Positions 10,111 to 57,860 of a stretch of DNA of 64,000 nt are shown one piece after another. The notes under the pieces are model-generated. The model saw only the letters and a list, made by a program, of their open reading frames with translations, had not been told where the DNA came from and searched no databases. Source of the DNA: Yersinia bercovieri ATCC 43970. GTDB lineage: Bacteria; Pseudomonadota; Gammaproteobacteria; Enterobacterales; Enterobacteriaceae. Every line of letters starts with the position of its first letter. Within the stretch, counting starts at the first letter, position 1. The position numbers and the translations under genes are program-made. The stretch covers positions 9,928 through 73,927 of the forward strand of contig NZ_CP054045.1 in assembly GCF_013282745.1 (NCBI RefSeq). The letters are read 5' to 3'.

Positions 10111-10144
10111 GGCCCTGATTTTGTGCATGCACAAAATCAGGGCC
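10111..10144. repeat. 34-bp perfect palindrome containing motif A (site 1)
   Basis: The core TTTTGTGCATGCACAAAA (10119-10136) is flanked by GGCCCTGA / TCAGGGCC, giving 17-nt self-complementary arms. It lies between convergent genes and could also end transcription in both directions. Confidence 0.85.
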
Positions 10145-10153
10145 TTGAACTGA

Positions 10154-10570
10154 TCATTCCCGAACTAAGTATTTTTCGAGCGCATCATGACCTTCTTTGT
10201 CTACTATGGCTTTTAGCGCCTTATTCATTCGTCCAGACCCCTTATAGATAATCTTCCTTCCATTAATCAAATAGGTTTTTGGTTCTACAGTTGGCGAACG
10301 TCGGCTTACCATATGTTTTTCTAGATCATCAAGGCCAATGCCTTCATTTCTGAGTAGTTTTGCCGTCTCTTTGATTTTGGCTTGTCGCTCTGCTTCCTGC
10401 CGTTTTTTGATATCTTCATCAGCTATTACATCTTCCAAAACTGCTTTCGCATCTGAAATTAGGATGTTTATCTGATCAGCAGTCATAAGGCGCAATACTT
10501 TTTTTCTACGCGTTAACTGATTAAGAAATTGAGAAACATCTTCAGCTGTAATTTTTTGAGTGTCATTCAT
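10154..10570 (-). CDS. H-NS-family nucleoid-associated protein (divergent)
   Basis: 138 residues. A charged N-terminal coiled coil (about 35-80, DEDIKKRQEAERQAKIKETAKLLRNEGIGLDDL) is followed by a short linker and a C-terminal module (TYLINGRKIIYKGSGRMNKAL). This parallels the H-NS arrangement of oligomerisation helix, linker and small DNA-binding domain, although the canonical QGR core reads KGSGR. Plasmid H-NS homologues damp the cost of AT-rich plasmids and silence transfer genes. It follows the 141-residue gene on the same strand with a 9-bp gap. Function inferred. Confidence 0.6.
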   Translation of the reverse strand: MNDTQKITAEDVSQFLNQLTRRKKVLRLMTADQINILISDAKAVLEDVIADEDIKKRQEAERQAKIKETAKLLRNEGIGLDDLEKHMVSRRSPTVEPKTYLINGRKIIYKGSGRMNKALKAIVDKEGHDALEKYLVRE

Positions 10571-10579
10571 GCAATATAC

Positions 10580-11005
10580 CTACTTAGAAAATGGCTTCGC
10601 TATGGGGACAAAATCATCCCCTTGCAGCACATAAAAATCGCAGTCCTCAACCCTTAGACGTTGGAACGTTTTAGCATCAACAAGAGGGAATCCGTCTGAA
10701 ATATCATTGGGTTCTTGCGAAATGAGCACTGGCACTGGTTCTGAATTAGTTCCTATTACTGCGTAAAGCGCTGTGTAATAAGGTAAAACCTGCTTAATCT
10801 TGTTATCTATCTTGGCGAATATATTTTTATTGCGGTAAATCTGAGTCGTGATTTTCCCGTCACCAAATTCAGGTGCCGGGATATCATCAACGACATGCTC
10901 AGCTGTAATTTTTGCGATATCACTTTTTACCCTTGAAAAGCCGGTTAGCAAATTGACTACTTTATTTTTCTTCTGTTCTTCTTGCTTCGATTTGATTTTA
11001 CTCAT
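10580..11005 (-). CDS. Unknown protein, first gene of the H-NS-like operon
   Basis: 141 residues with a basic N-terminus (MSKIKSKQEEQKKNK) and no signal peptide or membrane segment. The C-terminal half looks beta-rich (YYTALYAVIGTNSEPVPVLI). It shares an operon with the H-NS-like gene and is divergent from the lytic transglycosylase gene, with a motif B operator in the 119-bp gap. No family recognised. Confidence 0.65.
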   Translation of the reverse strand: MSKIKSKQEEQKKNKVVNLLTGFSRVKSDIAKITAEHVVDDIPAPEFGDGKITTQIYRNKNIFAKIDNKIKQVLPYYTALYAVIGTNSEPVPVLISQEPNDISDGFPLVDAKTFQRLRVEDCDFYVLQGDDFVPIAKPFSK

Positions 11006-11085
11006 CGCTCATTTACCAGAACCAAGTTTAGTTAATTTTGGCATAGTTTTTTTATGCCATCAAATTGCATTTATGCTAATCTTTG

Positions 11086-11105
11086 ATGATACAAATTTAT
11101 ATCAT
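11086..11105. promoter_or_regulatory. Motif B operator (ATGATA-N8-TATCAT) before the transglycosylase gene
   Basis: ATGATACAAATTTATATCAT, 20 bp before the ATG. Identical to the copy before the main transfer operon at 43298. Confidence 0.8.
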
Positions 11106-11124
11106 AGACTAACAGAGGGTTGAA

Positions 11125-11757
11125 ATGAGAAAATTAATATTAGTCTCTTTATTTTCTTCTTCGTTTTTAATTCCCCTTCCAAGTTACGCATTTATGGACT
11201 GCTTCATAAGTGCAGGGCAACAGTATGGTGTATCGCCATTGTTGATCCAGGCAATTGCGGAAGGTGAGTCTAAGTATAACAATCGCGCCATAAACTTGAA
11301 AAACTCAGATAGAACAACTGACGCCACTATGATGCAAATTAATTCTTGGTGGCATGATAAACCGGTTTTCACAGATAACAAGCTTAGCAGACAAAAACTA
11401 ATGGAAGATCCGTGCCTTAGTATAAATTTTGGGGCATGGGTACTTGCGGGTAATTTTTCTATAGGTGGTGTGAATTGGAACTCCGTGGGTGCCTATAACG
11501 CTGGTTGGGACAAAAGTAAGGCAACAGCAAGGCAAAACTACGTTAATAAAATTAGACCCATCTATGAGCGCCTAAAGCGTGAGTCTGGTGTTTCGCCATC
11601 CTCATCAGAAATGAATGATTCAAATTTAGGTTTGCTTACTGCCGAATTATCCCCTCCTTCTCAGAACCATAGTAAATCAAGCTCAAATACAGAACTTGTC
11701 ACTAAGTCATTTTTCCATTCAAGAGACAGCGATATGAAACTAGTAGGTGGTATGTGA
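11125..11757 (+). CDS. Conjugation-associated lytic transglycosylase (SLT family)
   Basis: 210 residues with a signal peptide (cleavage after SYA, about residue 23) and an SLT domain. Catalytic Glu48 lies in AEGESKYN; the pattern MMQINSWW and GAYNAG are classical family motifs. These periplasmic enzymes open peptidoglycan for assembly of the transfer apparatus (VirB1, F orf169, PilT). The motif B operator links it to the transfer genes. The C-terminal 55 residues are Ser-rich and probably flexible. It overlaps the next gene by 4 bp. Confidence 0.9.
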   Translation: MRKLILVSLFSSSFLIPLPSYAFMDCFISAGQQYGVSPLLIQAIAEGESKYNNRAINLKNSDRTTDATMMQINSWWHDKPVFTDNKLSRQKLMEDPCLSINFGAWVLAGNFSIGGVNWNSVGAYNAGWDKSKATARQNYVNKIRPIYERLKRESGVSPSSSEMNDSNLGLLTAELSPPSQNHSKSSSNTELVTKSFFHSRDSDMKLVGGM

Positions 11758-12161
11758 TGAACGATAAATCATTACTTTTGTATTCTGCATTTCCTGTTGT
11801 CGTTAGTTTAAATAAATTATTCGGAATTATTATTTTTCCAACGAGTCTTTTGATTTTCTTAAATCTAGTCAATGTCGTTATTCTTCATTTTATTTTACGC
11901 CTAGTTTTTGTAACGTCTTGGAAATTTGGAACCTATTTACATCTATGTACGCTTTTACTTTTAGCCGCAATCTTAACTATTCAAACGAACGGGGGTGATC
12001 CTTTGTTGCTCTCCAAATCATTTTGGTTTGAGGCCACAATTTTTAGCGGTGCCTGGCTGTTGCTCTTCTATTCCCTGTTCACTGAGCCTGAAATTAAGAC
12101 GGTAAAGAGTTTCAATTTAGTGCATGCACAAAAAAATGAAAATGGTGATAACGATGAATAG
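11754..12161 (+). CDS. Small integral membrane protein
   Basis: 135 residues with four hydrophobic stretches (about 18-35, 37-55, 62-77, 92-108) and a charged C-terminus. It starts within the end of the transglycosylase gene (ATGA overlap). Motif A (site 2) is part of its coding sequence and gives the residues LVHAQK. Probably a transfer accessory protein by operon context; family unknown. Confidence 0.7.
   Translation: MMNDKSLLLYSAFPVVVSLNKLFGIIIFPTSLLIFLNLVNVVILHFILRLVFVTSWKFGTYLHLCTLLLLAAILTIQTNGGDPLLLSKSFWFEATIFSGAWLLLFYSLFTEPEIKTVKSFNLVHAQKNENGDNDE
12116..12133. repeat. Motif A site 2, inside a gene
   Basis: TTTAGTGCATGCACAAAA, one mismatch to the consensus, coding for LVHAQK near the end of the 135-residue membrane protein. 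Confidence 0.75.
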
Positions 12162-12429
12162 TACCGTTCTAGGTTTTGTACTCATAGTCTTGGGCGCAGG
12201 GCTTCTAACTTTGATAGGTTGTTTTGTAAACAGTAAGGATCAAGTATCCAAAGGCAGTAAAAATATCCGAACATCCATACTTCCTGCCGACTTAGAAAAA
12301 AAACGCATGATAGAACGCGAACAAACCGCCTCTCTTGTCTCGGTTCCTGAAGAATCTAAGGTGTCTGCAACTCTCCCTACTAATTCAGAACCGGAAACCA
12401 AACCCACTACAGCCAATATCCCGAACTAA
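12154..12429 (+). CDS. Small membrane-anchored protein
   Basis: 91 residues from the ATG at 12154, which overlaps the end of the upstream gene; in-frame ATGs at 12124, 12136 and 12142 are alternatives. One N-terminal hydrophobic helix (LGFVLIVLGAGLLTLIGCFV) is followed by a hydrophilic tail rich in Pro, Thr and Glu. Part of the four-gene unit starting with the transglycosylase. Function unknown. Confidence 0.6.
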   Translation: MNSTVLGFVLIVLGAGLLTLIGCFVNSKDQVSKGSKNIRTSILPADLEKKRMIEREQTASLVSVPEESKVSATLPTNSEPETKPTTANIPN

Positions 12430-12443
12430 ATGGAGTCGATAAA

Positions 12444-12956: not shown

Positions 12957-12959
12957 TGC

Positions 12960-12997
12960 AAAGCAGCTGCGAGATAGTTATATTCCGCAGCTGCTTT
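12960..12997. terminator. Bidirectional terminator between convergent genes
   Basis: 12-bp perfect stem AAAGCAGCTGCG / CGCAGCTGCTTT with a 14-nt loop, placed between the Mrr-like gene (+) and traI (-). Confidence 0.75.
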
Positions 12998-13000
12998 AAT

Positions 13001-20044: not shown

Positions 20045-20045
20045 A

Positions 20046-20395: not shown

Positions 20396-20415
20396 ATGAT
20401 ACAAGTTTATATCAT
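20396..20415. promoter_or_regulatory. Motif B operator before the relaxosome operon
   Basis: ATGATACAAGTTTATATCAT, 21 bp upstream of the trwA-like start. One difference from the copies at 11086 and 43298. Confidence 0.8.
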
Positions 20416-21564: not shown

Positions 21565-21584
21565 ATGATACAAATTGATATCAT
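21565..21584. promoter_or_regulatory. Motif B operator before the 76-residue gene
   Basis: ATGATACAAATTGATATCAT, 22 bp before ATG 21607. Confidence 0.8.
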
Positions 21585-26188: not shown

Positions 26189-26206
26189 TTTTGTGCATGC
26201 ACAAAA
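26189..26206. repeat. Motif A site 3
   Basis: Perfect TTTTGTGCATGCACAAAA, beside the terminator of the DUF3560 gene. Confidence 0.85.
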
Positions 26207-28211: not shown

Positions 28212-28229
28212 TTTTGTGCATGCACAAAC
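28212..28229. repeat. Motif A site 4
   Basis: TTTTGTGCATGCACAAAC, one mismatch; touches the stop codon of the methyltransferase gene. Confidence 0.8.
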
Positions 28230-34530: not shown

Positions 34531-34566
34531 ATGCCACCAATGCCACCAATGCCACCAATGCCACCG
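34531..34566 (+). repeat. 9-bp microsatellite, four copies
   Basis: ATGCCACCA repeated four times, the last ending in G. It starts the 197-bp repeat array. Confidence 0.85.
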
Positions 34567-34710
34567 TTGTCACCGTTTTCCACATGAGCCGAGCCAGCCA
34601 GTAAGCCCCCACCAAAGGGGGCGATGTGGCGGGAGCGTCCCCGCGCGGAACAAGCACGGGGCGGCGATTGTGGTAAACGTTGGCAACTATTATCACTGAG
34701 TGCCTCCTGA

Positions 34711-34728
34711 TTTTGTGCATGCACAAAA
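34711..34728. repeat. Motif A site 5
   Basis: Perfect; palindromy extends to GATTTTG...CAAAATC. Confidence 0.85.
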
Positions 34729-34908
34729 TCACCTAATACTAACAGTCGAAACCAGAGCCGCCGTTGTCACCGTTTTCCACATGAGCCGAGCCAGCCAGTA
34801 AGCCCCCCACCAAAGGGGGCGATGTGGCGGGAGCGTCCCCGCGCTGAGCAAGCACGGGGCGGCGATTGTGGTAAACGTTGGCAACTATTATCACTGAGTG
34901 CCTCCTGA

Positions 34909-34926
34909 TTTTGTGCATGCACAAAA
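34909..34926. repeat. Motif A site 6
   Basis: Perfect; second copy within the tandem repeat array. Confidence 0.85.
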
Positions 34927-35098
34927 TCACCTAATACTAACAGTCGAAACCAGAGCCGCCGTTGTCACCGTTTTCCACATGAGCCGAGCCAGCCAGTAAG
35001 CCCCCCACCAAAGGGGGCGATGTGGCGGGAGTGTCCCCGTGCGGAGCAAGCACGGGGCGGCGATTGTGGTAAACGTTGACAACAAAACAAAAAACCCA

Positions 35099-36247: not shown

Positions 36248-36532
36248 ATGCGAACTAAGTCGCAAGCTGAAAAGAAGAGTCAAATTGATAAATTAAAATA
36301 TATCCCTATGCCCATTATGTGCCATATTGACGATAGAATATTTGTTGCTGAAAAATTGAGTATGCTTCACGAACGTTATAGAGAACGTATTGCTGGCTTA
36401 TATACTAAAGTTTTCTTTTTAAATTTACATGACCCTAAAATATCAGATTTAAAAAGGCTAGGTCATGCCAGGCAAAAAGCTAACCAATGGATATTAGAGT
36501 TTATTAATGGAATAATTGAAAATAATTCGTAG
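36248..36532 (+). CDS. Unknown protein, 94 residues
   Basis: ATG at 36248 has AAGGTG six bases upstream, better than the GTG at 36239. Basic, helical protein. Overlaps the 3' end of the par operon third gene by 29 bp on the opposite strand. Confidence 0.6.
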   Translation: MRTKSQAEKKSQIDKLKYIPMPIMCHIDDRIFVAEKLSMLHERYRERIAGLYTKVFFLNLHDPKISDLKRLGHARQKANQWILEFINGIIENNS

Positions 36533-37250
36533 ACTTTTTAATTTTATATTTTCCTTCAAAACATATTAACAAATCATCTTTAAGCAATTCATCTAACACA
36601 GCACTAACATCGGTAATCAAAGGAACCGAGCTTTTTGCACTTATCGATATAGCGATGTTGACGTTACTGAACCCGTCTTGGTCATCATAGACAGATAAAA
36701 AACAGTACGCTCTTAGTGCTAATTCTGGATTTGAATACTTATCAAAATATTCTTTCGATGGCTCCTGGTTTACTTCTCTAACTTTATCCCTAAATTGCTG
36801 ATATTTATTGGCAGCAATAAGCCATTTGCTAGCTTCATTTACATCATAATAATCAGGCACCTGATCCATATCTCGGCCTGAATCAGTGAACGTTCTCGCC
36901 CAGGAACACCAATCAAGATCATTGGTAGGTTGTACTTTTTGACTCTCCAAATAGTGCCAAGCTGTTTTCGCAGCCCAAAGTGGGGTGGTCTTATTTCTCA
37001 TCCAACTAAACAACGTATTCGAATAAATCGGCTTATCCAATTGCCTATATCCTAACTCGAACGCCAATTTACCTAGAAGTGTTCCAGCTTCCTCTTTTGA
37101 TAAACCTTGGTTCATTGCGCAAGTTTGCACAAACAGGGAAATTGGAATCCCACGGTCTTTATTTGTCAGGGCTGCATAATATGTAGCTGCATGCTGTTCT
37201 TGTAAAGAGATCGGGTCGCCCCGATCCTCTTGCTTAGCGGATGAAGTCAT
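36504..37250 (-). CDS. Third gene of the par operon, unknown
   Basis: 248 residues, 2 bp downstream of parB and so surely cotranscribed. The N-terminal half (TCAMNQGLSKEEAGTLLGKLAFELGYRQLDKPIYSNTLFSWMRN) contains a possible helix-turn-helix; the rest is helical. Perhaps a partition accessory or replication regulator. No family known to me. Confidence 0.65.
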   Translation of the reverse strand: MTSSAKQEDRGDPISLQEQHAATYYAALTNKDRGIPISLFVQTCAMNQGLSKEEAGTLLGKLAFELGYRQLDKPIYSNTLFSWMRNKTTPLWAAKTAWHYLESQKVQPTNDLDWCSWARTFTDSGRDMDQVPDYYDVNEASKWLIAANKYQQFRDKVREVNQEPSKEYFDKYSNPELALRAYCFLSVYDDQDGFSNVNIAISISAKSSVPLITDVSAVLDELLKDDLLICFEGKYKIKKSTNYFQLFH

Positions 37251-37252: not shown

Positions 37253-38644
37253 TTATTGACCGCCTTCAAAGTAGCCAGTTAAGGTAAACTCTTCCGCTGC
37301 TATCTCTTTAATTGAACTATCAGATAAAAGTTTGATCACCACATGATTTGGCTGCTCTGCTTTTTTCATCAAAATCACACAGTCGGTATCATTCCAGCGT
37401 CCCGCAACTTGTAACTCAATTTTCTTAACTGGCTTATTCTTTTTATCTTTGCCACTTCCTGCTGCCCCACTATTCTCTGTACCATTGGTGCTTAATTTTA
37501 TATCTATCACAGATAGAAGCATTTCAGCATCCATACTTTCTTCTTCAGTCAGAGAGCGGCGTTGCGTTAGGATATTCTCAGCCACTGATTTTAACGACAC
37601 GAGAGCTGCAAGTTCGGCGGCCTCTTTACTCGCAAACTTCAAGTTAGATGAAGTTGAAGGTGCGACATTAAACTCATGTGCAAAAGTAGTCTCAGCTGTA
37701 GAGATCCATTGATTATCTACAGGCTGCAAATATATGAATGCTTCACCCGTTTCTCCTCCCATCACTTCAATTTTTTGTGCATGCACAAAATCAAAAGCCA
37801 CTTCATCATTGTGGTTTTTAGTCGCAACATTTTCTTTTGAAGTAACTTCATTTGTTAGACTTTGACTATTAACCGCTTGGTGTCCTGAATCTTTAGTGCT
37901 GTCTGTAGGTGCTTTCAGCACATCTAGAGACATTGCTTTCAACACTTTCTGTGCACTACTGCGATCTACTTCTCCACTGTCAATAAAGGCTCGGCATAAA
38001 CTTTCATTGGCTTTATGGATTTTTAATAAAGAGTTGAGCGTCCAGGGATCAACCGTTTCACCATTTTGATATACTTTAATTAGGTAGTCCGGTAACTCAG
38101 CAAGAGCTTGCACTTTGGATACCCAAGCCCCTGTTTGACCAATACTCTTCGCTATAGACTCTTGAGTCAGGGTCTTGCCTTCAGCTTTTGCCAACGCCTT
38201 ACATTCAATTATCCAATTAGCAACATCGAGTAAATTCATATTATCTCGGGCAACATTATTAGTGCCTTGTTCCCAATAATTTTCGAAATCACTACGATTT
38301 TGCAAACTTGGATCTATTATTATCTTCAACTTCCAATCAGGCTTAGCCTCTTTAGCTTTTATACCTGCAAGGGTACGCGTAGCACCATGATGAATGCGAT
38401 AACCTTTATCATCCTTGGGATATACGGTACAAGGCTCACGCTGTCCCTGGCGCTCATCTAAGAACTCTTTGACATAGGACTCAATCAGCGCTTCATTATA
38501 TTTTTTTCGTGGATTTACTACGACATAACACTCTTCAGGATCAACGTAGAACACCTGACCGGCAATGTTTTTTTGATTAGCGGAAGCTGAACGCGAAATT
38601 GATTCAAGCGCTGGAATATTTAAAGTAATAGGTTTCTTGCTCAT
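37253..38644 (-). CDS. parB: ParB-family partition protein
   Basis: 463 residues. ParB/Srx-type core: VDPEECYVVVNPRKKYNEALIESYV, then the box-II-like RIHHGATRTLAGIKA, and a KorB-type helix-turn-helix (TQESIAKSIGQTGAWVSKVQALAELPDYLIKVY, about 160-195). The long C-terminal third is plasmid-specific. It overlaps parA by 4 bp. ParB binds a centromere and is moved by ParA. The gene contains a motif A site that encodes DFVHAQK (about residues 284-290). Family call is firm. Confidence 0.88.
   Translation of the reverse strand: MSKKPITLNIPALESISRSASANQKNIAGQVFYVDPEECYVVVNPRKKYNEALIESYVKEFLDERQGQREPCTVYPKDDKGYRIHHGATRTLAGIKAKEAKPDWKLKIIIDPSLQNRSDFENYWEQGTNNVARDNMNLLDVANWIIECKALAKAEGKTLTQESIAKSIGQTGAWVSKVQALAELPDYLIKVYQNGETVDPWTLNSLLKIHKANESLCRAFIDSGEVDRSSAQKVLKAMSLDVLKAPTDSTKDSGHQAVNSQSLTNEVTSKENVATKNHNDEVAFDFVHAQKIEVMGGETGEAFIYLQPVDNQWISTAETTFAHEFNVAPSTSSNLKFASKEAAELAALVSLKSVAENILTQRRSLTEEESMDAEMLLSVIDIKLSTNGTENSGAAGSGKDKKNKPVKKIELQVAGRWNDTDCVILMKKAEQPNHVVIKLLSDSSIKEIAAEEFTLTGYFEGGQ
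37773..37790. repeat. Motif A site 7, inside parB
   Basis: Perfect 18-bp palindrome within the coding sequence. Confidence 0.85.
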
Positions 38645-39510
38645 TGTGCCACCCCTAAGAAAATATGGTTTAAGACATTCTTAACTTCTTTAGCTGCTAG
38701 ACGGGCATTACCATCATCAAATTTCCAGACAGGGATCGCTGTATCTGTCGATATGCCGAAGGTTTCACGGTCGTTAATGCACGGTGTCAAATTCACGTCT
38801 AGCTGTTTAAGTTGTGCTAGATAGTCTTTATGGCGGCTTCTACGAGAGTTAAATTTGTTTGGAATGACAATATAAGAGGGCTTCGTCATATTCTGACCTG
38901 GATTATTAGCATTAATATTGTCAATAAGTTCATTGGTTATAGAAATGGCGTCACCTACACCGCCTATTGAAAGCCCCCCCATCTCAGTAACTAAAACAGC
39001 ATGAGTGCATGCCAGCAGACCTGCTTGTTGCCGGTTACCTTCTCCTGGCGGGGTATCAATTACAATCACGTCGAAATCATCACGTAAAGATTGCAAATGG
39101 AAGTATGGATAAACAACGATGCCATCACTCATTGGACGCGAATCAATGCCTTTCATTTCATGTTCAGCAGGCAATAGCCAGATATTCGGGTGGTTGGGCA
39201 TTTCATAAATCGGCTTTGTAATGCCTTCATCACTGAAGAGATCACTGGCCCGCGCAAACTCAGATAAATCAGGGATAACATTTTCGAAAAACATTTTCGT
39301 TATATGTTTATCAAAATCAATTACCAACACTTTTAAGCCAAGGCTAGCTAAATACCAAGCTTCATGCGCGGTGACTGTCGTTTTACCAACCCCACCTTTA
39401 TCATTAGAGTTACCAAAGATGGGACGAGCAGTACGAATAGCTTCTACAATTTTCTTATGTAACAAGCTAGCAGACGAAAGACTTTTCTTGCTCTTAACAG
39501 ACTGAACCAT
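38641..39510 (-). CDS. parA: ParA-family partition ATPase
   Basis: 289 residues. Deviant Walker A NDKGGVGKTT (Lys38, Lys43), Walker A' VLVIDFDKH, Walker B VIVIDTPPGEGN. There is no large N-terminal DNA-binding domain, only about 30 extra residues. It positions plasmid copies together with ParB. A changed copy of the CATAACCGGAG leader lies just upstream, and three motif A sites lie 200-300 bp upstream. Confidence 0.93.
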   Translation of the reverse strand: MVQSVKSKKSLSSASLLHKKIVEAIRTARPIFGNSNDKGGVGKTTVTAHEAWYLASLGLKVLVIDFDKHITKMFFENVIPDLSEFARASDLFSDEGITKPIYEMPNHPNIWLLPAEHEMKGIDSRPMSDGIVVYPYFHLQSLRDDFDVIVIDTPPGEGNRQQAGLLACTHAVLVTEMGGLSIGGVGDAISITNELIDNINANNPGQNMTKPSYIVIPNKFNSRRSRHKDYLAQLKQLDVNLTPCINDRETFGISTDTAIPVWKFDDGNARLAAKEVKNVLNHIFLGVAQ

Positions 39511-39710: not shown

Positions 39711-39728
39711 TTTTGTGCATGCACAAAA
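39711..39728. repeat. Motif A site 8
   Basis: Perfect; first of the three-site cluster upstream of parA. Confidence 0.85.
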
Positions 39729-39757: not shown

Positions 39758-39775
39758 TTTTGTGCATGCACAAAA
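39758..39775. repeat. Motif A site 9
   Basis: Perfect; second of the cluster. Confidence 0.85.
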
Positions 39776-39797: not shown

Positions 39798-39815
39798 ATT
39801 TGTGCATGCACAAAA
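39798..39815. repeat. Motif A site 10
   Basis: ATTTGTGCATGCACAAAA, one mismatch; third of the cluster. Confidence 0.8.
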
Positions 39816-39849: not shown

Positions 39850-39882
39850 CTTGATACAAATTTATATCATATCTATGATACA
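39850..39882. promoter_or_regulatory. Motif B operator plus half-site
   Basis: TTGATACAAATTTATATCAT (39850-39869) and ATGATACAG (39874-39882), upstream of the 91-residue gene at 39911. Confidence 0.75.
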
Positions 39883-39910: not shown

Positions 39911-40186
39911 ATGGCTATCAAAACCAAGCACTATATCCCCAACAAACAACGTTATCAGAACTATGTAAATCGACTAAAAGAACAAGGTGGCGCTATAAAG
40001 AAAATATACTTTGAGAAAGAAGAACTGGAACAAATAGAGCAATTGAAAAATAAACTAATGCTGTCCGACAAAGCAACCGTGTCAGATATTGTCAAAGCAG
40101 TCATACTTATTGCATCAGAAGGTGAATTATATACATCTAGTGGAATAGTTAATATTTCTGCACTGACAACAATAAATAAAGCATGA
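39911..40186 (+). CDS. Small RHH-like protein, candidate regulator
   Basis: 91 residues from the ATG at 39911 (AAGAGGTTAAAA upstream). Basic N-terminus, then IKKIYFEKEELEQIEQLKNKL...ATVSDIVKAVILIA, a strand-helix-helix pattern like ribbon-helix-helix proteins. Preceded by motif B, so it may repress its own transcription and that of the transfer operons. A longer frame to 39800 runs through operator sequence and is rejected. Confidence 0.6.
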   Translation: MAIKTKHYIPNKQRYQNYVNRLKEQGGAIKKIYFEKEELEQIEQLKNKLMLSDKATVSDIVKAVILIASEGELYTSSGIVNISALTTINKA

Positions 40187-42336: not shown

Positions 42337-42690
42337 ATGGCTAATGAACAAACTAACAACGTTCGAATGATGAAGCATGTAACGCTTGAACGGTTAAGTA
42401 AGGTTATTGCGAATAATCTGAAACTACTCGCTAAATCCAGAAACCTCTCTCTTTATGAGCTACAAAATCAAATAGTTGGGGCTTTTCTTCTTAAACATGC
42501 AGAAACAGAAATAAGATACGTGCCATCAACCCATGATGATAAAAATCGCTATAATGTATTCGTAAGTAATAGCGTGTTTGCTCAGATCCAAAATCGAGGT
42601 ATCGAGGATCAAAAGAGCAATGCAGAGATTGTTTACAACGCTATCATTTGTTATGCCAGGGTCAACGGACTGAACAATAAGTTGCTTTAA
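42337..42690 (+). CDS. Putative DNA-binding protein, 117 residues
   Basis: Start follows CGAGGATCATTCT. Helical N-terminus (TLERLSKVIANNLKLLAKSRNLSLYELQ) and a second helical region with the outline of an RHH/Arc-like domain. First of two small genes ahead of the transfer operon; may regulate transfer or bind oriT as TraY/TraM-type proteins do (inference). Confidence 0.6.
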   Translation: MANEQTNNVRMMKHVTLERLSKVIANNLKLLAKSRNLSLYELQNQIVGAFLLKHAETEIRYVPSTHDDKNRYNVFVSNSVFAQIQNRGIEDQKSNAEIVYNAIICYARVNGLNNKLL

Positions 42691-42800: not shown

Positions 42801-43121
42801 ATGGGTACGCCAAACGATCATTTAAAATTCTTTAGACTTCGAATTGATGAAGATATCATAGAAAAAATTAATCGTGAAACGCAAATCAAAGATGGAATGA
42901 AGCAAGACCTTATTTCTGATGCTGCTGATTGGTTCGCAACACAACGTAGTAAAGGGGAGATTCCCCCTCGCTATTTCGCAAGTCCAACGTGTGCCGAATA
43001 TGAACCCATCTGGATCAGAAAAGAAACTGCAAAGAGAATTCAAGAACTTGCAAAAACTGATGGAACAAATGCTTCAAGAGTTCTTTATACAGCACTTGCA
43101 AGATATGTAGAAAAAAAGTGA
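42801..43121 (+). CDS. Putative double-RHH regulator, 106 residues
   Basis: Two strand-helix-helix units: LKFFRLRIDEDIIEKINRE (N-terminal) and EPIWIRKETAKRIQELAKTDGTNASRVLYTALARYV (C-terminal). This resembles duplicated ribbon-helix-helix proteins such as TraY. Ribosome binding site AAAGGAAATCAT. Followed by a strong terminator that isolates it from the transfer operon. Candidate binder of motif B. Confidence 0.65.
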   Translation: MGTPNDHLKFFRLRIDEDIIEKINRETQIKDGMKQDLISDAADWFATQRSKGEIPPRYFASPTCAEYEPIWIRKETAKRIQELAKTDGTNASRVLYTALARYVEKK

Positions 43122-43297: not shown

Positions 43298-43317
43298 ATG
43301 ATACAAATTTATATCAT
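43298..43317. promoter_or_regulatory. Motif B operator before the main transfer operon
   Basis: ATGATACAAATTTATATCAT, 16 bp before the ATG at 43333. Confidence 0.85.
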
Positions 43318-43650: not shown

Positions 43651-44518
43651 CAAAATGTTTAAACCTGCGTTATTAAGTCTATTTATTCTCTCCGGTTTTG
43701 TGCATGCACAAAACGCATCTGGTGTAGCAGCATTGAATGCAACCGAGACACCGGCATTTAAAAAGCTTCAAGAAGCTCAAGCTGGTTCAATTGCTGAAGT
43801 TAAAGCCGCGCAAGATGAGTTTAAACAGACTTTTTCTCAAATGAATTTCACTAACTTTGCTGAGTCTCCAGTGAAAGGAATTTATGAATTACATACTGGC
43901 GGCAATGTTATTTATTTCACCCCTAAATCGGAAGACCGAAAAGGGGTAATTATTTTTGGTGAGATGTGGGATTCAAATGGTGTAAGCCTGACGAATGAAA
44001 GCAAATTAAAAGCAATCAAAAGTGAATGGAAAAAACTTCCAGTGGGTAGTGCTATTTCAATCGGTGATAAAAATGCACCTTCCTATTATGAAATAACTGA
44101 CCCTGATTGCCCTTACTGCCATTCCTATCATGAATGGATAAAAGATTACGCCAAAACTAATCCTGTACAACGCAATCTTATCTTTATGTTAAACCCTGGT
44201 CATCCAGAAGCACCGGCGAAAATTGAACACATCATTTGTTCTAAAGATAAAGAACAGGCAATTAACGATATGTTCGAACAAAAACCCGTTGCACTTGAAA
44301 AATGCCCCGAAGCAAAAGGCATTATTCAACAACATCAAGACATCGTTAAAGCATTAGGTGTGAACGGTACACCATCATTTGTATTTGATGTTAACGAAGA
44401 ACCTGAACTCATCGTTGGATTTAATAAAAGTAAAGTTATGGAGGCAATAACTACAGCAACAGACAAAGTAAAAGCTAAAGCCAACGAGTTAATAAAACAA
44501 AACTCGCCCCAAAAATAG
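43640..44518 (+). CDS. dsbC: DsbC-like thiol:disulfide isomerase of the transfer system
   Basis: 292 residues with a signal peptide ending SGFVHA|Q, whose last residues are encoded by motif A site 11. The mature protein has the thioredoxin-type active site DCPYCHSY (Cys157, Cys160) and a cis-Pro loop (NGTPSFVF). It would fold the cysteine-rich TraN, TraU and TraH proteins in the periplasm, the role played by TrbB/DsbC in F-like systems. Start chosen at 43640 because the earlier frame lacks a signal peptide in phase. Confidence 0.9.
   Translation: MQISKMFKPALLSLFILSGFVHAQNASGVAALNATETPAFKKLQEAQAGSIAEVKAAQDEFKQTFSQMNFTNFAESPVKGIYELHTGGNVIYFTPKSEDRKGVIIFGEMWDSNGVSLTNESKLKAIKSEWKKLPVGSAISIGDKNAPSYYEITDPDCPYCHSYHEWIKDYAKTNPVQRNLIFMLNPGHPEAPAKIEHIICSKDKEQAINDMFEQKPVALEKCPEAKGIIQQHQDIVKALGVNGTPSFVFDVNEEPELIVGFNKSKVMEAITTATDKVKAKANELIKQNSPQK
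43696..43713. repeat. Motif A site 11, inside dsbC
   Basis: Perfect; encodes FVHAQN at the signal peptidase site. Confidence 0.85.
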
Positions 44519-51032: not shown

Positions 51033-51033
51033 G

Positions 51034-53085
51034 ATGAGGTTCAGGATGAATAAACTTTCAATAATCATATGGGCGGCCTTGCTGCCCTGTTTTTTTGTGC
51101 ATGCACAAAAACAAGAAAGCATCAGTAAAGCCTCACAAGACAAAGTTGATTCAATTGCCAATGATATTAGCGGTGTCGTCAAAGGTAAAACCAACTCAGC
51201 TTCAACTATTAATAACTCCTTATTGAGTCCAATGAACGGACAAGGCCAGATGTCTACTTTCGATGGGAAACAGTCATTTGATGGTAAGGCGGTCTGTAAA
51301 GGTACATCTGAGTTTATGAAAATGCTGGTTCAACCAGGCGCTGGCGGTGACGTAACCATTCTGAATGTTATGCAAGATACCAATATGGACGGCAAGCTTG
51401 ATATCACAATGGCCCCTAATTGGAACGTATCCGCAGTATGCTCCAATGGGTTTATGACTTGTACTGACCCCAATAACACTACTACCTGTACATCCTGGGC
51501 GTGGACTGCTGACAGTAAGAGCTACCAGTTAGGACGCAAGCGAGTAGCCCTAACAGATCTGGGTGGTTGTTACTGCATCAATAATAAATGCGGCAGCAAT
51601 TTGGCTTGGACGAACATGGGGCAAATTCTCCGTAACCTTGGCGGTGGGGCGTCTCAAGCCTTGGCTGCTGTCAATCCTTGGTACACCCTTTCTGATGTCA
51701 AGATTGACGGTGTTATCGCGTCATTTGTTGGTGGTGACGCGGGTTCATGCAATGTTGGCGACTCTACCGGCTTCTTTAACAGCCCCGATGGTTCCCAGCT
51801 ACTGACATACCAGAACAACGAAACAAAAATGAAGGACGATGCGGCTAATTCAACTCAAAGTTCTGATGCGTATAAAGCCATCGTTAATGGCAGTTTAAAC
51901 CCAAATGAAACTTCTGAAACCCGACGTTGCGAAGTGCGCCGTAATGTTGGCATCGATGAGCCAACTCTAGATGAAATCATCAAGTTTGATGGCGGTGAAG
52001 GGCAGGTAACTCAATGCGGAACCGACTGTCTTCAGTTGGTACTGGGAAGACTCGGCAACGACTACTGGCAAGGTAGTTGTAGCTATTATGAGGTTAAAAG
52101 TAATTTCATTTTAAAAGATCCCTCCCGTATTAAAACAGCAACCTTAATCAATGCCGTATTTGATGACTGGATGCAAGTTTGGGTAGGTGACAAGGTTGCA
52201 TGGAATGGCCCTTACGGTAACTGGACTGATGCTGGCCCCGTGCCTGGGGCATGTGAGCTAGTGACAAGTTGGAACGTAAATCCAAACATGGATTTTGCGC
52301 AGTATATGAAAAATCCTGGCCCCCTTCAGTTCAAAATCCGTGTTGAAGTTAGCGGGGCGGGAGAAGGGTATGCATTGTTACGCGTTAAGACGGATATGAG
52401 CTGCAAATTAGGAGCTGAATCTATTTCTGATACTTGTACTGCCTATGAAAATGACTCGACCTGTAAGCTGGTAGAGGAAGAAATTGACGGCATCAAGTCA
52501 TTTATTGGTGGCATAAATACTGGCCTTAAGCCCTTATCACAAACACACAAGATAAATGGTAACTTCTGTAGCATTGAAGTTAAACGCGATTGGTTCACTA
52601 AAAAGAGAGTCTATCGTTGCAATACAAAAAATGATTACGATACATCTAAAATTATTGAGCGTAAGGGATATATCGAAGACAACGTAAAACCGGATCACTA
52701 TAAAGACAAAATGTTTTCAGAAAATGGAAAAGTCACATTAGGTGAAGGTGATTTATTTTGGCCTAAATTACCTACGGTCAATGAATGCGTCAATGTCTGT
52801 AAAACGAGAAAAGAGAAAACCACCCCTGATATGTCAGTCTCTGGTCAAGTTGATAAAAATAAAACTCCAGGCCAGAAAGTATATAATTATTACTATCACG
52901 AATGTGGGACTGATAATAAATGTGTAACCGATTTCGATGAGGATGTAGTTAAAGCCTGTCAGTGTATTAATGAGTTTGCAGAAGCAGCAGCTATTATGCA
53001 AACAATGCGGCAAGCAGGACAAGACATGATATGTAGCTCAGGCGAAATAAAAAACCCTAATGGCACTCCTGTGGAATCAAATTGA
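51034..53085 (+). CDS. traN: TraN-like cysteine-rich protein, N-terminal type (first of two)
   Basis: 683 residues (or 679 from the ATG at 51046). A signal peptide ends CFFVHA|Q, encoded by motif A site 12. The mature protein is rich in cysteine with TraN-like segments: GGCYCINNKCG, NPWYTLSDVKIDGVIASFVGG and GNYGNWTDAG-type. It lacks the conserved TraN C-terminus, which is found in the next gene. TraN is an outer-membrane protein that stabilises mating pairs and helps choose recipients. Confidence 0.8.
   Translation: MRFRMNKLSIIIWAALLPCFFVHAQKQESISKASQDKVDSIANDISGVVKGKTNSASTINNSLLSPMNGQGQMSTFDGKQSFDGKAVCKGTSEFMKMLVQPGAGGDVTILNVMQDTNMDGKLDITMAPNWNVSAVCSNGFMTCTDPNNTTTCTSWAWTADSKSYQLGRKRVALTDLGGCYCINNKCGSNLAWTNMGQILRNLGGGASQALAAVNPWYTLSDVKIDGVIASFVGGDAGSCNVGDSTGFFNSPDGSQLLTYQNNETKMKDDAANSTQSSDAYKAIVNGSLNPNETSETRRCEVRRNVGIDEPTLDEIIKFDGGEGQVTQCGTDCLQLVLGRLGNDYWQGSCSYYEVKSNFILKDPSRIKTATLINAVFDDWMQVWVGDKVAWNGPYGNWTDAGPVPGACELVTSWNVNPNMDFAQYMKNPGPLQFKIRVEVSGAGEGYALLRVKTDMSCKLGAESISDTCTAYENDSTCKLVEEEIDGIKSFIGGINTGLKPLSQTHKINGNFCSIEVKRDWFTKKRVYRCNTKNDYDTSKIIERKGYIEDNVKPDHYKDKMFSENGKVTLGEGDLFWPKLPTVNECVNVCKTRKEKTTPDMSVSGQVDKNKTPGQKVYNYYYHECGTDNKCVTDFDEDVVKACQCINEFAEAAAIMQTMRQAGQDMICSSGEIKNPNGTPVESN
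51093..51110. repeat. Motif A site 12, inside the first traN gene
   Basis: Perfect; encodes FVHAQK at the signal peptidase site. Confidence 0.85.
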
Positions 53086-53092
53086 GGCTGGC

Positions 53093-54670: not shown

Positions 54671-54685
54671 TTTCTAGGACTTGAT

Positions 54686-54919: not shown

Positions 54920-54958
54920 AACGCACCTAAGATAGACTAAAAAAACATGCATCACACA

Positions 54959-54991
54959 GTAAGGGATACATAAAAAACATGTATCCCTTAC
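54959..54991. terminator. Inverted repeat ending the first transfer operon
   Basis: 13-bp perfect stem GTAAGGGATACAT / ATGTATCCCTTAC with an AAAAAAC loop. No T-run, so it may be an attenuator or operator instead. Confidence 0.5.
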
Positions 54992-54999
54992 ATAAATGA

Positions 55000-55019
55000 A
55001 TGATACAAATTACTATCAG
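55000..55019. promoter_or_regulatory. Motif B-like site 1 before traW-traU
   Basis: ATGATACAAATTACTATCAG; right arm changed. Confidence 0.6.
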
Positions 55020-55037
55020 TAATCTCATTTTTAAACT

Positions 55038-55057
55038 ATGATAAATATATATATCAT
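55038..55057. promoter_or_regulatory. Motif B operator before traW-traU
   Basis: ATGATAAATATATATATCAT, 17 bp before the ATG at 55075. Shows that the second transfer operon is controlled like the first. Confidence 0.75.
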
Positions 55058-55074
55058 AGTGAAATGAGGGAAGT

Positions 55075-56658
55075 ATGAAATCATCACTCTCAGTATCGGC
55101 TTTTTTCGTGGCGATGCTGCTATCTTCACATGTTGAAGCCTCACAGAACGTTATCGGTCAACTTTATAGCATCAGTGAACCCGATGCTTTGGAACAAATT
55201 CAAGAGCGTGTTGCTAACGTCGATTGGCAAAAAGAACTCAACAAAGATCGTGAAAAGTGGGGCGCATTCAAAGGGGTTCCACTACCAACCACTCAGGAAG
55301 ATAAAACTCGTAAGGTGATACCGTTCTATTCTGCACCTTTTGAAGTGAAAGATAAGGATGGACGTTTACTATTTCCGAAAGGCTACACTTTTAACCCACT
55401 GGTACATGTTCGACTCCCGCAACGTTTAATTATTGTAGAAAAAGGACAAGAAGACTGGCTTAAGTCAATAGCAACTGAATCTGACATGATCATTTATGCA
55501 AGTGGTGACGTTATTGAAGTTAGCCAGCGTATCGGTAGAAATGCCTTCATCCTCGATAAGAACTTACAACAACGCCTTGATATCAAAGTTGTCCCTTCCA
55601 TCATTCAACAGGAAGGGGAGCACTTAATCATTCAAGAGTTTTCTAAACAGCATGTTGAAAATGCTAAAGATAAGGCTCTGCTTGATTTTAATGGCAAAAA
55701 ACTGGCGTGGTCAGTAGTCGGTTCGGTAATGGATTTCTTAGTCTCTCCCGCACACGCAACCTGCAAATCATCATTTATAAACCCAATTACAGATATTAGC
55801 TGGAGCTGTATTTTCCCCATGCGGATAGCTGGGGTACAGGTTGTTGGCGGTGAAGAGAACCCCTCGAATAGTCAAAGTCCTGTTTGTGTCTGTAAAGGGG
55901 CCGCACTCCCGATGATTGGCCTTAAAACTTCCTTTTGGGAACCTAAGCGCATAATCGATACGGTCAGTGACCCTTATTGCATGATGCCGCTAGGAACTCA
56001 ACTGAGTAAACCCGTGCCTGGCACTCTTGCCGGCGGCTACATCGAAACCAATACCAGTAAACGCGTATTTCAACAGGCACATTACTTTATTTTTCCTGCC
56101 TGGAAAATTTTGAATATGTTCTATGACATCCCCTGCCTAGATGACGAAGGTTTTGATGTCGCCATGATGACGGAGATCTTACCGCAATGGAACAATGAAG
56201 CACTCAGTCTGATTATTAACCCTGAAGCCCTGCTTTTTGCTAATCCGGTGGCAACAATTGCCTGTTCTGCCGATGCAATCGCTGGCACTTATGGCATGCC
56301 TCTTAATGCATTGTTCTGGTGTATGGGGAGTTGGGGGAACGTCTATCCTCTGTCTGGTTCGATCACTAGCACCGATTTCGTCGAAGCTAATGCTGGTATC
56401 GCTGCTCGCTCAATTTTCACTATGGGCCGGTTAGGTTTGTTGTGGAATACCTCAGATGATGGCTGCTATCGCGAACTGGCCCCTATCTGGAAAAAAGACC
56501 GCTTTAAGTTACAGCTTATGAGGCCAACCCGCGCTAATGCATGTCTGCCTATAGGACGTGAGGGTTTGTTATGGACTGGCGGCAAACATGACCCACTTAA
56601 AGATAATTTCATGTGGATGATGTTTGAAAAGAAAGATTGTTGCATCAGGGCTTACTAA
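55075..56658 (+). CDS. TraW-TraU fusion protein
   Basis: 527 residues. Residues 1-205 are TraW-like: signal peptide (cleavage after VEA), IGQLYSISEPDALEQIQERV, and FNPLVHVRLPQRLIIVEKGQEDW. Residues 230-527 are TraU: CKSSFINPITDISWSCIFPMRIAGV, CVCKG, ADAIAGTYG-type and MWMMFEKKDCCIRAY. Between them (about 213-229) is AWSVVGSVMDFLVSPAHA, which looks like the former TraU signal peptide. Both parts act in the periplasm in F, in pilus assembly and DNA transfer. The frame is uninterrupted. Whether the internal site is cut to give two proteins is open. Confidence 0.9.
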   Translation: MKSSLSVSAFFVAMLLSSHVEASQNVIGQLYSISEPDALEQIQERVANVDWQKELNKDREKWGAFKGVPLPTTQEDKTRKVIPFYSAPFEVKDKDGRLLFPKGYTFNPLVHVRLPQRLIIVEKGQEDWLKSIATESDMIIYASGDVIEVSQRIGRNAFILDKNLQQRLDIKVVPSIIQQEGEHLIIQEFSKQHVENAKDKALLDFNGKKLAWSVVGSVMDFLVSPAHATCKSSFINPITDISWSCIFPMRIAGVQVVGGEENPSNSQSPVCVCKGAALPMIGLKTSFWEPKRIIDTVSDPYCMMPLGTQLSKPVPGTLAGGYIETNTSKRVFQQAHYFIFPAWKILNMFYDIPCLDDEGFDVAMMTEILPQWNNEALSLIINPEALLFANPVATIACSADAIAGTYGMPLNALFWCMGSWGNVYPLSGSITSTDFVEANAGIAARSIFTMGRLGLLWNTSDDGCYRELAPIWKKDRFKLQLMRPTRANACLPIGREGLLWTGGKHDPLKDNFMWMMFEKKDCCIRAY

Positions 56659-56682
56659 TGAAAAAACTATTGATCACCATAT

Positions 56683-56696
56683 CGTTAGCGCTAACG
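56683..56696. repeat. Palindrome CGTTAGCGCTAACG, copy 2
   Basis: Inside the trbC signal peptide coding sequence, 5 bp before motif A site 13. Same as 28151-28164. Confidence 0.7.
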
Positions 56697-56701
56697 ACTA
56701 A

Positions 56702-56719
56702 TTTTGTGCATGCACAAGA
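56702..56719. repeat. Motif A site 13, inside trbC
   Basis: TTTTGTGCATGCACAAGA, one mismatch; encodes FVHAQE. Confidence 0.8.
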
Positions 56720-57375
56720 GATTGCTCTCTCACCTGAAATGATGAAAGCGGCACAATCCGCAGTTGATCATCGGGTTAGCAATAAAGAAATGAACAGTTT
56801 TGCCGAAAACATAGCTAGCTACTCCAAATCATCAGAATTTAAGCAGCAGCAACAAGACCTACAGCAGCAGGTTTTTAAAACAGCCGGTTTAGACCCTGAT
56901 AAACAGCAACAAGAAGAACGTCCTGAATTGGTCAAAGACCAACTGGTGCTATTTGTGTCTAGCAGTATGCCTATCCATACCCTACGAAACTATGCGCGGG
57001 ATTTGTCTAAAGTCGGGGGGTTATGGTATTACGAGGCGCGGTTGGTGGAATTAGTCGTATTGCCGACACCATGAAGCTGAGCCGCGAGATCCTGGCGGTT
57101 AACCAGACCTGCGATACAACATCATGCAAAATGTGGTCAACTCAAGTTCTGATTGATCCGGTTCTATTTAAAAAATATGACATTAAAGTTGTTCCTGCGC
57201 TGATCTTCCAGCCAGATATGAATATTAATAGTTATTGTGATGGTCTGGAATTAATGAAGAAAGCAGAGACTATTATTTATGGTGATGCCTCTATTGCTAA
57301 AATGCTAGAAGCCATGAATCGAATCACTCCGAATAAAAAGTATGAATCACTTATCAAAGTCATTCGGGGGCTATA

Positions 57376-57840
57376 ATGGATACTTATAATAGAGAATACT
57401 TTAATGTCATGATTATTATTTCAATCATGTTTATTATTTACTCTGCTTTCAAATATATCAATATTCCACTGACCAGTAGTGTGTTACCCCATGCCTTTAT
57501 TAAAACGGGTGTTCACCCAAAGCAAGCGGGTGACTACGTTATTTTCACTTTAGAGCACCCATATTTACCTCACGTTAAAGATCAACTAACCAAGCGAATT
57601 GGTTGTATCGAAGGGCAAAGGCTTGAGCGAATTAACCAACACTTCTATTGCGATGGTCAGCTTATTGCCATTGCTTTAGAACGTGATATTCAAGGGGCGC
57701 CTCTCCCCGTATTCTCTTTCACTGGCATCATACCTGCCGGTAAAGCTTTTTTAGTTGGTGATACTCCTAATAGTTTCGATAGCCGCTATTGGGGGCTTTT
57801 TGATATTCAAAAAACAGAAAAACTCATCCCTATTATTTGA
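57376..57840 (+). CDS. TraF/TrhF-type S26 peptidase-like protein
   Basis: 154 residues, one N-terminal membrane helix, then a signal peptidase-like fold: GDYVIFTLEHPYLPHV, TKRIGCIEGQRL (general-base Lys region), HFYCDGQLIAIA, and GDTPNSFDSRYWG near the end. The catalytic Ser would lie in TSSVLPHAF (about 35), which is less canonical than the SxP usual in the family. In related systems this protease matures the pilin. Overlaps trbC by one base. Confidence 0.8.
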   Translation: MDTYNREYFNVMIIISIMFIIYSAFKYINIPLTSSVLPHAFIKTGVHPKQAGDYVIFTLEHPYLPHVKDQLTKRIGCIEGQRLERINQHFYCDGQLIAIALERDIQGAPLPVFSFTGIIPAGKAFLVGDTPNSFDSRYWGLFDIQKTEKLIPII

Positions 57841-57842
57841 AT

Positions 57843-57860
57843 CATTGTGCATGCACAAAA
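57843..57860. repeat. Motif A site 14
   Basis: CATTGTGCATGCACAAAA, two mismatches in the outer arm; lies between the S26-like gene and the ribosome binding site of the lipoprotein gene. Confidence 0.75.

What the first reader, a model, noticed from the sequence alone, without database searches (positions are those of the whole stretch)
10119..57860. Dispersed 18-bp palindrome TTTTGTGCATGCACAAAA at 14 places
Seen directly: nine perfect copies, four with one mismatch, one with two, at 10119, 12116, 26189, 28212, 34711, 34909, 37773, 39711, 39758, 39798, 43696, 51093, 56702 and 57843. An 18-mer should not recur by chance in 64 kb. Copies lie between genes, in tandem repeats, beside terminators and inside coding sequences. 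None is found before 10 kb in the accessory region, which argues for a backbone function. The closest known parallel is the KorB operator of RK2, a dispersed palindrome bound by a ParB-family protein.
Basis: partly seen in the sequence, partly recalled or inferred. Interest (0 to 1): 0.87.

Follow-up and report, generated by a model that had tools for sequence, protein, structure and literature searches.

The report
Dispersed partition sites on Yersinia plasmid
A short mirror-image DNA word is scattered over a transferable Yersinia plasmid and kept in place in distant cousins; it is most likely the docking site of the plasmid's own segregation and control protein, and inside several genes it doubles as code for a protein export signal.

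Summary
In detail: 14 sites in the window, a 15th elsewhere on the 73.9-kb plasmid, none (up to 2 mismatches) on the chromosome. The 14-bp core hardly changes between related plasmids while its flanks do. Five distant plasmids with ParB about 24-32% identical to ours carry a one-step variant, TTGCGCATGCGCAA, 10-18 times, several at the same genes (dsbC, traN, traU/trbC junction). In-gene copies mostly encode F-V/A-H-A-Q, in dsbC, traN and trbC where a signal peptide would end: a dual DNA/protein code. Other plasmids with KorB-type ParB carry their own dispersed palindromes; in NAH7 and IncC these are published ParB-bound parS sites. Binding was not tested here. A serious rival, or partner, is a small ribbon-helix-helix-like protein (window 42801-43121): four related filamentous-phage or prophage loci carry its relative with the cousins' palindrome 26-27 bp before its start codon and no ParB hit. 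A second dispersed operator (TGATA-N8-TATCA), mostly near gene starts, was also found. The core idea is a known kind; dual code, conserved positions and phage link are the new parts.

The parts
10119..10136 (.). palindrome, perfect; inside a terminator-like stem downstream of the H-NS-like gene
12116..12133 (.). palindrome, 1 mismatch; overlaps the end part of hypB and the start of hypC
26189..26206 (.). palindrome, perfect; between DUF3560 gene and relE, beside a terminator-like stem
28212..28229 (.). palindrome, 1 mismatch; at the stop codon of a cytosine methyltransferase gene
34711..34728 (.). palindrome, perfect; in 198-bp tandem repeat
34909..34926 (.). palindrome, perfect; in 198-bp tandem repeat
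37773..37790 (.). palindrome, perfect; inside parB, encodes FVHAQ after the DNA-binding half
39711..39728 (.). palindrome, perfect; about 200 bp upstream of parA
39758..39775 (.). palindrome, perfect; about 250 bp upstream of parA
39798..39815 (.). palindrome, 1 mismatch; about 290 bp upstream of parA
43696..43713 (.). palindrome, perfect; in dsbC, encodes FVHAQ after a hydrophobic N-terminal stretch (likely signal-peptide end)
51093..51110 (.). palindrome, perfect; in the first traN-like gene, encodes FVHAQ after a hydrophobic N-terminal stretch
56702..56719 (.). palindrome, 1 mismatch; 5' part of trbC just after traU
57843..57860 (.). palindrome, 2 mismatches; 11 bp after the S26 peptidase gene; by the pYE854 annotation one end overlaps the start codon of the PEGA-domain gene
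37253..38644 (-). parB, 463 aa, KorB domain; best candidate binder
   Evidence: (PF08535 E=1.8e-8)
38641..39510 (-). parA, 289 aa, partition ATPase
42801..43121 (+). 'hypO', 106 aa, tandem ribbon-helix-helix-like protein; rival or second binder
42337..42690 (+). 'hypN', 117 aa, weakly related to hypO (profile E=0.042; pYE854 copy 0.009)
39911..40186 (+). 91-aa protein divergent from parA; a TGATA operator overlaps a promoter-like site before it; RHH-like by eye only
11087..11104 (.). second dispersed operator TGATA-N8-TATCA, 21 bp before the lytic transglycosylase gene
20397..20414 (.). second operator, 22 bp before hypD-traD-mobF
21566..21583 (.). second operator
39852..39869 (.). second operator, between the palindrome array and the 91-aa gene divergent from parA
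43299..43316 (.). second operator, 17 bp before hypP-dsbC
55001..55018 (.). second operator, 57 bp before traU
55039..55056 (.). second operator, 19 bp before traU

Best explanation
The palindrome is the dispersed parS/operator site of the plasmid's KorB-domain ParB. Inferred mechanism: ParB loads at the copies upstream of parA (segregation and autoregulation) and at single copies spread over the backbone, from which a KorB-like clamp could reach nearby transcription units and couple transfer and maintenance genes to the ParB level. In-gene copies are tolerated because in one frame the site reads Phe-(Val/Ala)-His-Ala-Gln, a good signal-peptidase cleavage motif, so it can sit at the signal-peptide ends of exported transfer proteins. 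Shown: sites, conservation, positions, codon frame. Inferred: ParB binding, regulation, segregation role, cleavage at the motif. The RHH-like protein may read the same sites.
For: Plasmid-only distribution. Core 14 bp: 0 of 210, 0 of 196 and 1 of 210 substitutions against 109/2904, 119/2595 and 268/2899 in flanks, for pYE854, pWKY and p17Y0414.1 (Fisher p 7e-4, 3e-4, 1.4e-7; flanks of the three parA-side sites overlap each other). ParB has a KorB domain and matches KorB chains of the PDB (best E=7e-4). Five distant plasmids with ParB 24-32% identical to ours carry TTGCGCATGCGCAA: 16, 17, 18 and 13 sites at up to one mismatch (of Buttiauxella 91 of 121 kb were taken) and 10 exact. A copy lies 21-204 bp upstream of parA in 11 of 12 plasmids (four of these are the close Yersinia set; miss: E. 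coli pLD91). KorB-type ParB plasmids without an RHH hit also have dispersed palindromes: Serratia p75 10 exact, pEIB1 3, NAH7 3 exact and 4 with one mismatch, pRA1 7 in the 50 kb taken. In NAH7 (PMC12421886) and IncC (PMC10954446: 14 sites in R55, four in ORFs) ParB binds them by EMSA. 7 of 15 own sites have an E. coli counterpart by my reading, p about 1e-6 under a rough uniform model.
Against: No binding or footprint data for this ParB. Four phage or prophage loci have the cousins' palindrome with an RHH relative and no ParB hit. E. coli pLD91 has no copy within 5 kb upstream of parA. Arms differ among the RHH-less ParB plasmids, while the 9 plasmids examined with an RHH hit (two Aeromonas ones weak) share TTG(C/T)GCATGC(A/G)CAA. 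The CATG centre is not universal: 4 of 7 NAH7 sites have GCACGC at the centre, RK2 OB has an odd centre. Photobacterium pPHDP70 showed only 2 copies of an IncC-like palindrome. The ParB tree does not decide (weak forks).
Confidence: 0.72

Rival explanations
1. The palindrome is the operator of the plasmid's tandem ribbon-helix-helix-like protein (window 42801-43121), a global repressor; ParB uses other DNA.
For: RHH relatives in L028, L173, L185 and L199 go with 3, 4, 2 and 2 matches of TTTGYGCATGCRCAAA, one of them 26-27 bp before the RHH start codon in 4 of 4. 13 ParB queries give no tblastn hit at E<=0.01 in these four loci (the same queries but NAH7 find the window's parB). RHH relatives occur in 41 plasmid records, the same number and genera as the related ParA in rows H101-H141. 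The phage loci have no exact TGATA operator. Two Aeromonas plasmids have weak RHH-like ORFs at the same place.
Against: Serratia p75, NAH7, pEIB1 and the first 50 kb of pRA1 have no RHH hit better than E=0.58, yet have dispersed palindromes with KorB-type ParB. The window's RHH gene has no palindrome before it, whereas parA does. The four phage loci are related (RHH of L173 and L185 96% identical to L028, of L199 61%), so not independent.
Confidence: 0.13
2. Both proteins read the same sites: ParB for segregation and loading, the RHH protein as local repressor or ParB competitor; the phages took over the RHH module. (Overlaps with the best explanation; not exclusive of it.)
For: Sum of the two lines of evidence above. 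Precedents: KorA acting with KorB in RK2 (PMC11790492, passages) and a mobile element copying plasmid parS, SGI1 (PMC10954446, passages).
Against: I recall no case in which an RHH protein and a KorB-type ParB share one operator (no search made for it beyond); a change of specificity (GTG to GCG) would have to be followed by both.
Confidence: 0.4
3. Phage copies are parS mimics that hijack the ParB of co-resident plasmids, as SGI1 does with IncC. (Concerns the phage copies; compatible with the best explanation.)
For: SGI1 precedent with two parS copies (PMC10954446, passages); filamentous phages often use conjugative pili (recalled).
Against: Both host genomes (G094, G326) have no match to the Enterobacter-plasmid ParB at E<=1e-3 (without a positive control there, this shows little). 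The fixed 26-27 bp spacing to the RHH start fits an operator better.
Confidence: 0.2
4. RNA-level element (hairpin in mRNA) rather than a DNA site.
For: One copy lies in a terminator-like stem; sites could fold as short hairpins with a CATG loop (by eye, not folded).
Against: The would-be loop bases are as invariant as the stem, and copies lie both inside and outside genes.
Confidence: 0.03
5. Chance or mobile-repeat artefact.
For: Two copies (34711, 34909) sit in one tandem repeat.
Against: Shuffles and simulations, differing flanks, conservation in relatives.
Confidence: 0.01

Closest known systems
IncC/IncA plasmid parS (R55, pRA1), bound by KorB-domain ParB (PMC10954446, passages seen)
   Same: Dispersed symmetrical 14-bp core, 14 copies incl. 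one at the parA promoter, four inside ORFs, KorB-domain ParB, conserved backbone
   Different: Core is TTTCACATGTGAAA; its ParB is only a distant relative (tblastn hits to IncC-type plasmids about 28-29% over half the protein); no RHH hit in the 50 kb of pRA1 taken; no signal-peptide code mentioned in the passages seen
NAH7 (IncP-9) parS-NAH (PMC12421886, abstract and passages seen)
   Same: 18-bp dispersed palindrome, TTTCTCGCATGCGAGAAA, bound by ParB in EMSA, near par and transfer genes; absent from the transposon
   Different: Six copies, reported intergenic; different arms; MPF_T plasmid; third gene is a KorA homologue
KorB operators OB of RK2/RP4 (PMC2680271, PMC11790492, passages seen)
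   Same: Dispersed palindrome of a ParB-family regulator with T/A arms, paired at some promoters with a second operator (OA, 32/33 bp centre to centre)
   Different: Odd centre, TTTAGC(C/G)GCTAAA; clamp sliding and KorA locking not tested here
SGI1 parS mimics (PMC10954446, passages seen)
   Same: A mobile element carrying copies of a plasmid's dispersed palindrome, as the phage loci here do
   Different: Phage copies sit at an RHH gene; no ParB dependence shown

Membership tests
parABS with KorB-type ParB | parA-parB operon with KorB-domain ParB | tested here: met
parABS with KorB-type ParB | palindromic site upstream of parA | tested here: met
   3 copies 203-290 bp upstream
parABS with KorB-type ParB | multiple dispersed backbone copies | tested here: met
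   15 copies on C2, kept in relatives
parABS with KorB-type ParB | ParB binds the site | not testable with these tools
   only by analogy with NAH7 and IncC in print
parABS with KorB-type ParB | site confers stability or incompatibility | not testable with these tools
   bench work needed
RK2 KorB/OB | site sequence TTTAGC(C/G)GCTAAA | tested here: not met
   site is TTTTGTGCATGCACAAAA; RK2 itself was not held
RK2 KorB/OB | CTP clamp and KorA partner | not tested
   a second operator 52-53 bp from a palindrome at two loci is suggestive only
RHH operator | RHH-fold protein encoded nearby | tested here: inconclusive
RHH operator | site before the RHH gene's own start | tested here: inconclusive
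   yes in 4 of 4 phage loci, no in the window

The most novel reading that the evidence does not exclude
One palindrome is read three ways: by a KorB-type ParB as a dispersed centromere, by a tandem RHH repressor as an operator, and by the ribosome as a signal-peptidase cleavage motif. The RHH-palindrome module has also moved between these plasmids and filamentous phages.
Probability: 0.3. Interest if true: 0.85.

Novelty: new variant of a known kind. Interest (0 to 1): 0.62.

Why it matters
It adds a plasmid family to the small set with dispersed ParB-type sites, and shows that such sites can keep their places over great divergence. It gives a case of a DNA control site fused with a protein sorting signal: the residue at the -3 position of the likely cleavage site (Val or Ala) follows the DNA variant in several proteins at once. 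The phage module makes a testable link between plasmid regulators and filamentous phages.

Tried and rejected
Rejected: chance; a host chromosomal site; a genus-wide site (the 24 other Yersinia genomes have none); a mobile repeat as the cause of the whole set (flanks differ). In 295 family genomes TTGYGCATGCRCAA matched 17: own 14 copies, G094 3, fifteen others one each, so single copies are background; eight of these places were fetched and only L028 (G094) was followed further. A genome-contig scan with the ParB alignment confirmed no relative. In viral contigs 35 stretches matched, two with more than one copy. The phage collection has no match to the RHH protein.

Led nowhere or weak: AlphaFold of ParB alone was poor (mean pLDDT 40.5), so no fold search was made. 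The ParB tree cannot tell ParB from RHH as determinant. The third gene of the par operon (36504-37250) has no Pfam match but weak relatives in Serratia p75 and pEIB1; not followed, so it remains an untested third candidate.

Own slips: one search failed (window file not loaded; repeated). One search built a profile with the Aeromonas RHH row in a wrong frame, so its hit in the second Aeromonas plasmid (E=0.0047) is weak; the row was corrected, but the hit was not rescored by a profile without itself. first read the 91-aa ORF one base off; corrected. The ParB part was cut at 4000 characters; the phage loci were therefore searched again. Positions shared between plasmids were counted by eye. The parB copies lie in the same linker, not in the same alignment column.

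Papers: PMC12421886 abstract and passages; PMC10954446, PMC2680271 and PMC11790492 passages only; all others as search listings. Print searches for the site: the 18-mer (0 papers), GTGCATGCAC with plasmid and ParB, GCGCATGCGC (43 papers, 20 titles seen, none on plasmids). 24 papers name pYE854 (20 listed), none read for it. Most subscription journals are not held, so the original pYE854 paper was not seen.
Full report
Check of the observation. The 18-mer TTTTGTGCATGCACAAAA lies at exactly the 14 places named, 9 perfect, 4 with one mismatch and 1 with two (shuffles mean 0.18, largest 2). The window is C2:9928-73927 of a genome with two contigs; C2 is 73,927 bases. All 15 matches at up to 2 mismatches lie on C2, one of them at C2:551, outside the window. 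The other contig has none. Of 25 Yersinia genomes searched, only the window's own has the 14-mer TTGTGCATGCACAA. Of the 24 others, 21 have no match to ParB and 3 have partial ones (27-33% identity over at most 255 of 463 residues, E 3e-9 to 5e-7).

What the plasmid is. It belongs to the pYE854 family: 13 plasmid records match a 12-kb backbone stretch over at least 80%, all Yersinia. The three of them that I fetched whole, pYE854, pWKY and p17Y0414.1, are typed MOBF, MPF_F, rep_cluster_214. parA and parB lie at 38641-39510 and 37253-38644; ParB has a KorB domain (E=1.8e-8) and matches RK2 KorB chains (E=7e-4 and 2.5e-3).

Selection on the site. Against pYE854, pWKY and p17Y0414.1 the 14-bp core shows 0 of 210, 0 of 196 and 1 of 210 substitutions, the flanks 109 of 2904, 119 of 2595 and 268 of 2899. 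One site (C2:49685) could not be aligned in pWKY and was dropped there. Over all 18 bp the counts are 3 of 270, 3 of 252 and 6 of 270, so the outer two bases on each side vary more.

Distant relatives. E. coli pLD91-1-76kb, Buttiauxella pBTX_120 (91 of 121 kb taken), an E. hormaechei plasmid and Aeromonas pKAM330_2 carry TTGCGCATGCGCAA at 16, 17, 18 and 13 places with up to one mismatch, a second Aeromonas plasmid at 10 exact places. It is the most frequent 14-bp palindrome in each. Their ParBs are 24-32% identical to ours. Several sites sit at the same genes. Of the 8 plasmids (4 Yersinia, 4 others) a site lies in dsbC in 8, in the first traN-like gene in 8, at the traU/trbC junction in 8, just after the S26 peptidase gene or before traF in 7 (not Aeromonas), upstream of the gene after traG in 7 (not Aeromonas), downstream of the H-NS-like gene in 6 and inside parB in 6. 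By my reading 7 of the 15 own sites have an E. coli counterpart; under a uniform model with a 200-base window this has p about 1e-6, a rough figure because the tolerance was set by hand.

Dual code. One search read exact 14-mer sites inside frames of at least 150 codons. The commonest reading is TTT GTG CAT GCA CAA (FVHAQ) in Yersinia and TTT GCG CAT GCG CAA (FAHAQ; I or L when the first codon differs) elsewhere. In dsbC, the traN-like gene and trbC it follows a hydrophobic N-terminal stretch, where V-H-A or A-H-A before Q would be a good signal-peptidase I site (established A-X-A rule; no signal-peptide program was run). The trbC examples come from pWKY, p17Y0414.1 and the two Aeromonas plasmids; the own trbC frame is too short for that list. 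Exceptions in the same call: the PEGA-gene copies, one copy each in Buttiauxella and E. hormaechei genes and an opposite-strand Buttiauxella frame are read otherwise; in both Aeromonas traN-like genes the site lies at the very start in another frame; and the parB, Aeromonas mobF, traG-like and one further Aeromonas frame have the FVHAQ-type reading without an evident signal peptide. That the -3 residue is Val in the Yersinia proteins and Ala in the others, as the intergenic copies are GTG or GCG, speaks for selection on DNA.

KorB-type ParB elsewhere. Serratia p75 has TTTCGCATGCGAAA at 10 exact places, pEIB1 TTTTAGCATGCTAAAA at 3, NAH7 TTCTCGCATGCGAGAA at 3 exact and 4 one-mismatch places, the latter with GCACGC at the centre, and pRA1 TTTCACATGTGAAA at 7 in the first 50 kb. 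Photobacterium pPHDP70 gave no clear case (2 copies of CTTTCACATGTGAAAG). The NAH7 and IncC palindromes are ParB-bound by EMSA in print (PMC12421886; PMC10954446, where R55 has 14 copies, four in ORFs, and SGI1 carries two mimics). The nearest copy lies 21-204 bp upstream of parA in 11 of 12 plasmids, E. coli pLD91 being the miss (pPHDP70 and pRA1 not in that list). So dispersed palindromes, mostly with a CATG centre, go with this ParB type even without an RHH hit.

The ribbon-helix-helix line. A chromosomal locus with three copies (L028) holds an ORF 40% identical to the plasmid's 106-aa protein at 42801-43121. That protein looks like two RHH units in tandem: PF01402 on the C-terminal part at E=0.016, below the curated cut-off, and a CopG-family chain on the N-terminal half at E=0.089. 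Two IMG/VR contigs (L173, L185) and a phage contig of G326 (L199, RHH 61% identical to that of L028) have it too. Each has a copy of TTTGCGCATGCGCAAA, the variant of the distant plasmids rather than of the window, 26-27 bp before the RHH start codon, with 3, 4, 2 and 2 matches in all. L173 and L199 hold filamentous-phage-type genes by my reading of their ORFs. 13 ParB queries find nothing in these four loci at E<=0.01. A search of 392 family genomes found the RHH in 3: own, G094 and G326. In plasmids it occurs in 41 records, the same number and genera as the related ParA (rows H101-H141). Hence the plasmids cannot separate the two candidates; the phages favour RHH, the RHH-less plasmids favour ParB. 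Binding by both is a simple sum, but is not shown.

A second operator. TGATA-N8-TATCA (typically ATGATAYAAATTTRTATCAT) occurs 9 times on the own plasmid and 7-14 times in six relatives from Enterobacterales, where 0.1-0.2 is expected; 0 times in pKAM330_2 and NAH7, once each in pEIB1, Serratia p75 and pPHDP70. On the own plasmid it lies 21 bp before the lytic transglycosylase gene, 22 before hypD-traD-mobF, 17 before hypP-dsbC and 57 and 19 before traU; the copies at window 59 and 21566 have no such place. At two loci (parA side, and C2:606) it is 52-53 bp from a palindrome; nearest distances of 35-79 bp occur at one to three places in each of four relatives. This resembles the OA/OB pairing of RK2 (PMC2680271). 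Its regulator is unknown; the 91-aa gene next to parA with this operator over a promoter-like site is one candidate.

Verdict. Real, strongly conserved and most likely the parS/operator network of a KorB-type ParB (0.72), possibly shared with an RHH repressor. The kind is known; the conserved positions, the double use as an export signal and the phage module are the new parts.

Noticed in passing
window 11087, 20397, 21566, 39852, 43299, 55001, 55039 (also 59, and C2:606): A second dispersed inverted repeat, TGATA-N8-TATCA, mostly just before gene or operon starts and shared by six relatives from Enterobacterales; looks like the operator of a transfer regulator.
   Followed up: partly
L028:7113-7770, L173:4412-5374, L185:293-683, L199:390-1655: Phage or prophage loci carry the plasmid-type RHH gene and the distant plasmids' palindrome, without a ParB hit.
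   Followed up: partly
window 28151 and 56683 (C2:38078, 66610): A third palindrome, CGTTAGCGCTAACG, twice here and 2-3 times in three Yersinia relatives; E. hormaechei has CGTTACATGTAACG three times.
   Followed up: no
window 56637-57376: The trbC reading frame appears split into two ORFs here, while pWKY and p17Y0414.1 have one ORF of 246 codons.
   Followed up: no
L023:38646-38945 (-), Aeromonas pKAM330_2: An unannotated ORF with a weak RHH-like match (E=0.0074) near dsbC, where the Enterobacterales plasmids have their RHH gene.
   Followed up: partly
L050, L062, L100 (one metagenome bin): Four copies of TTTTTTGTGCATGCACAAAA-like palindromes on three contigs of one bin, without ParB hit.
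   Followed up: no
window 34560-35083: A 198-bp tandem repeat, 2.7 copies, that contains two of the palindromes.
   Followed up: no
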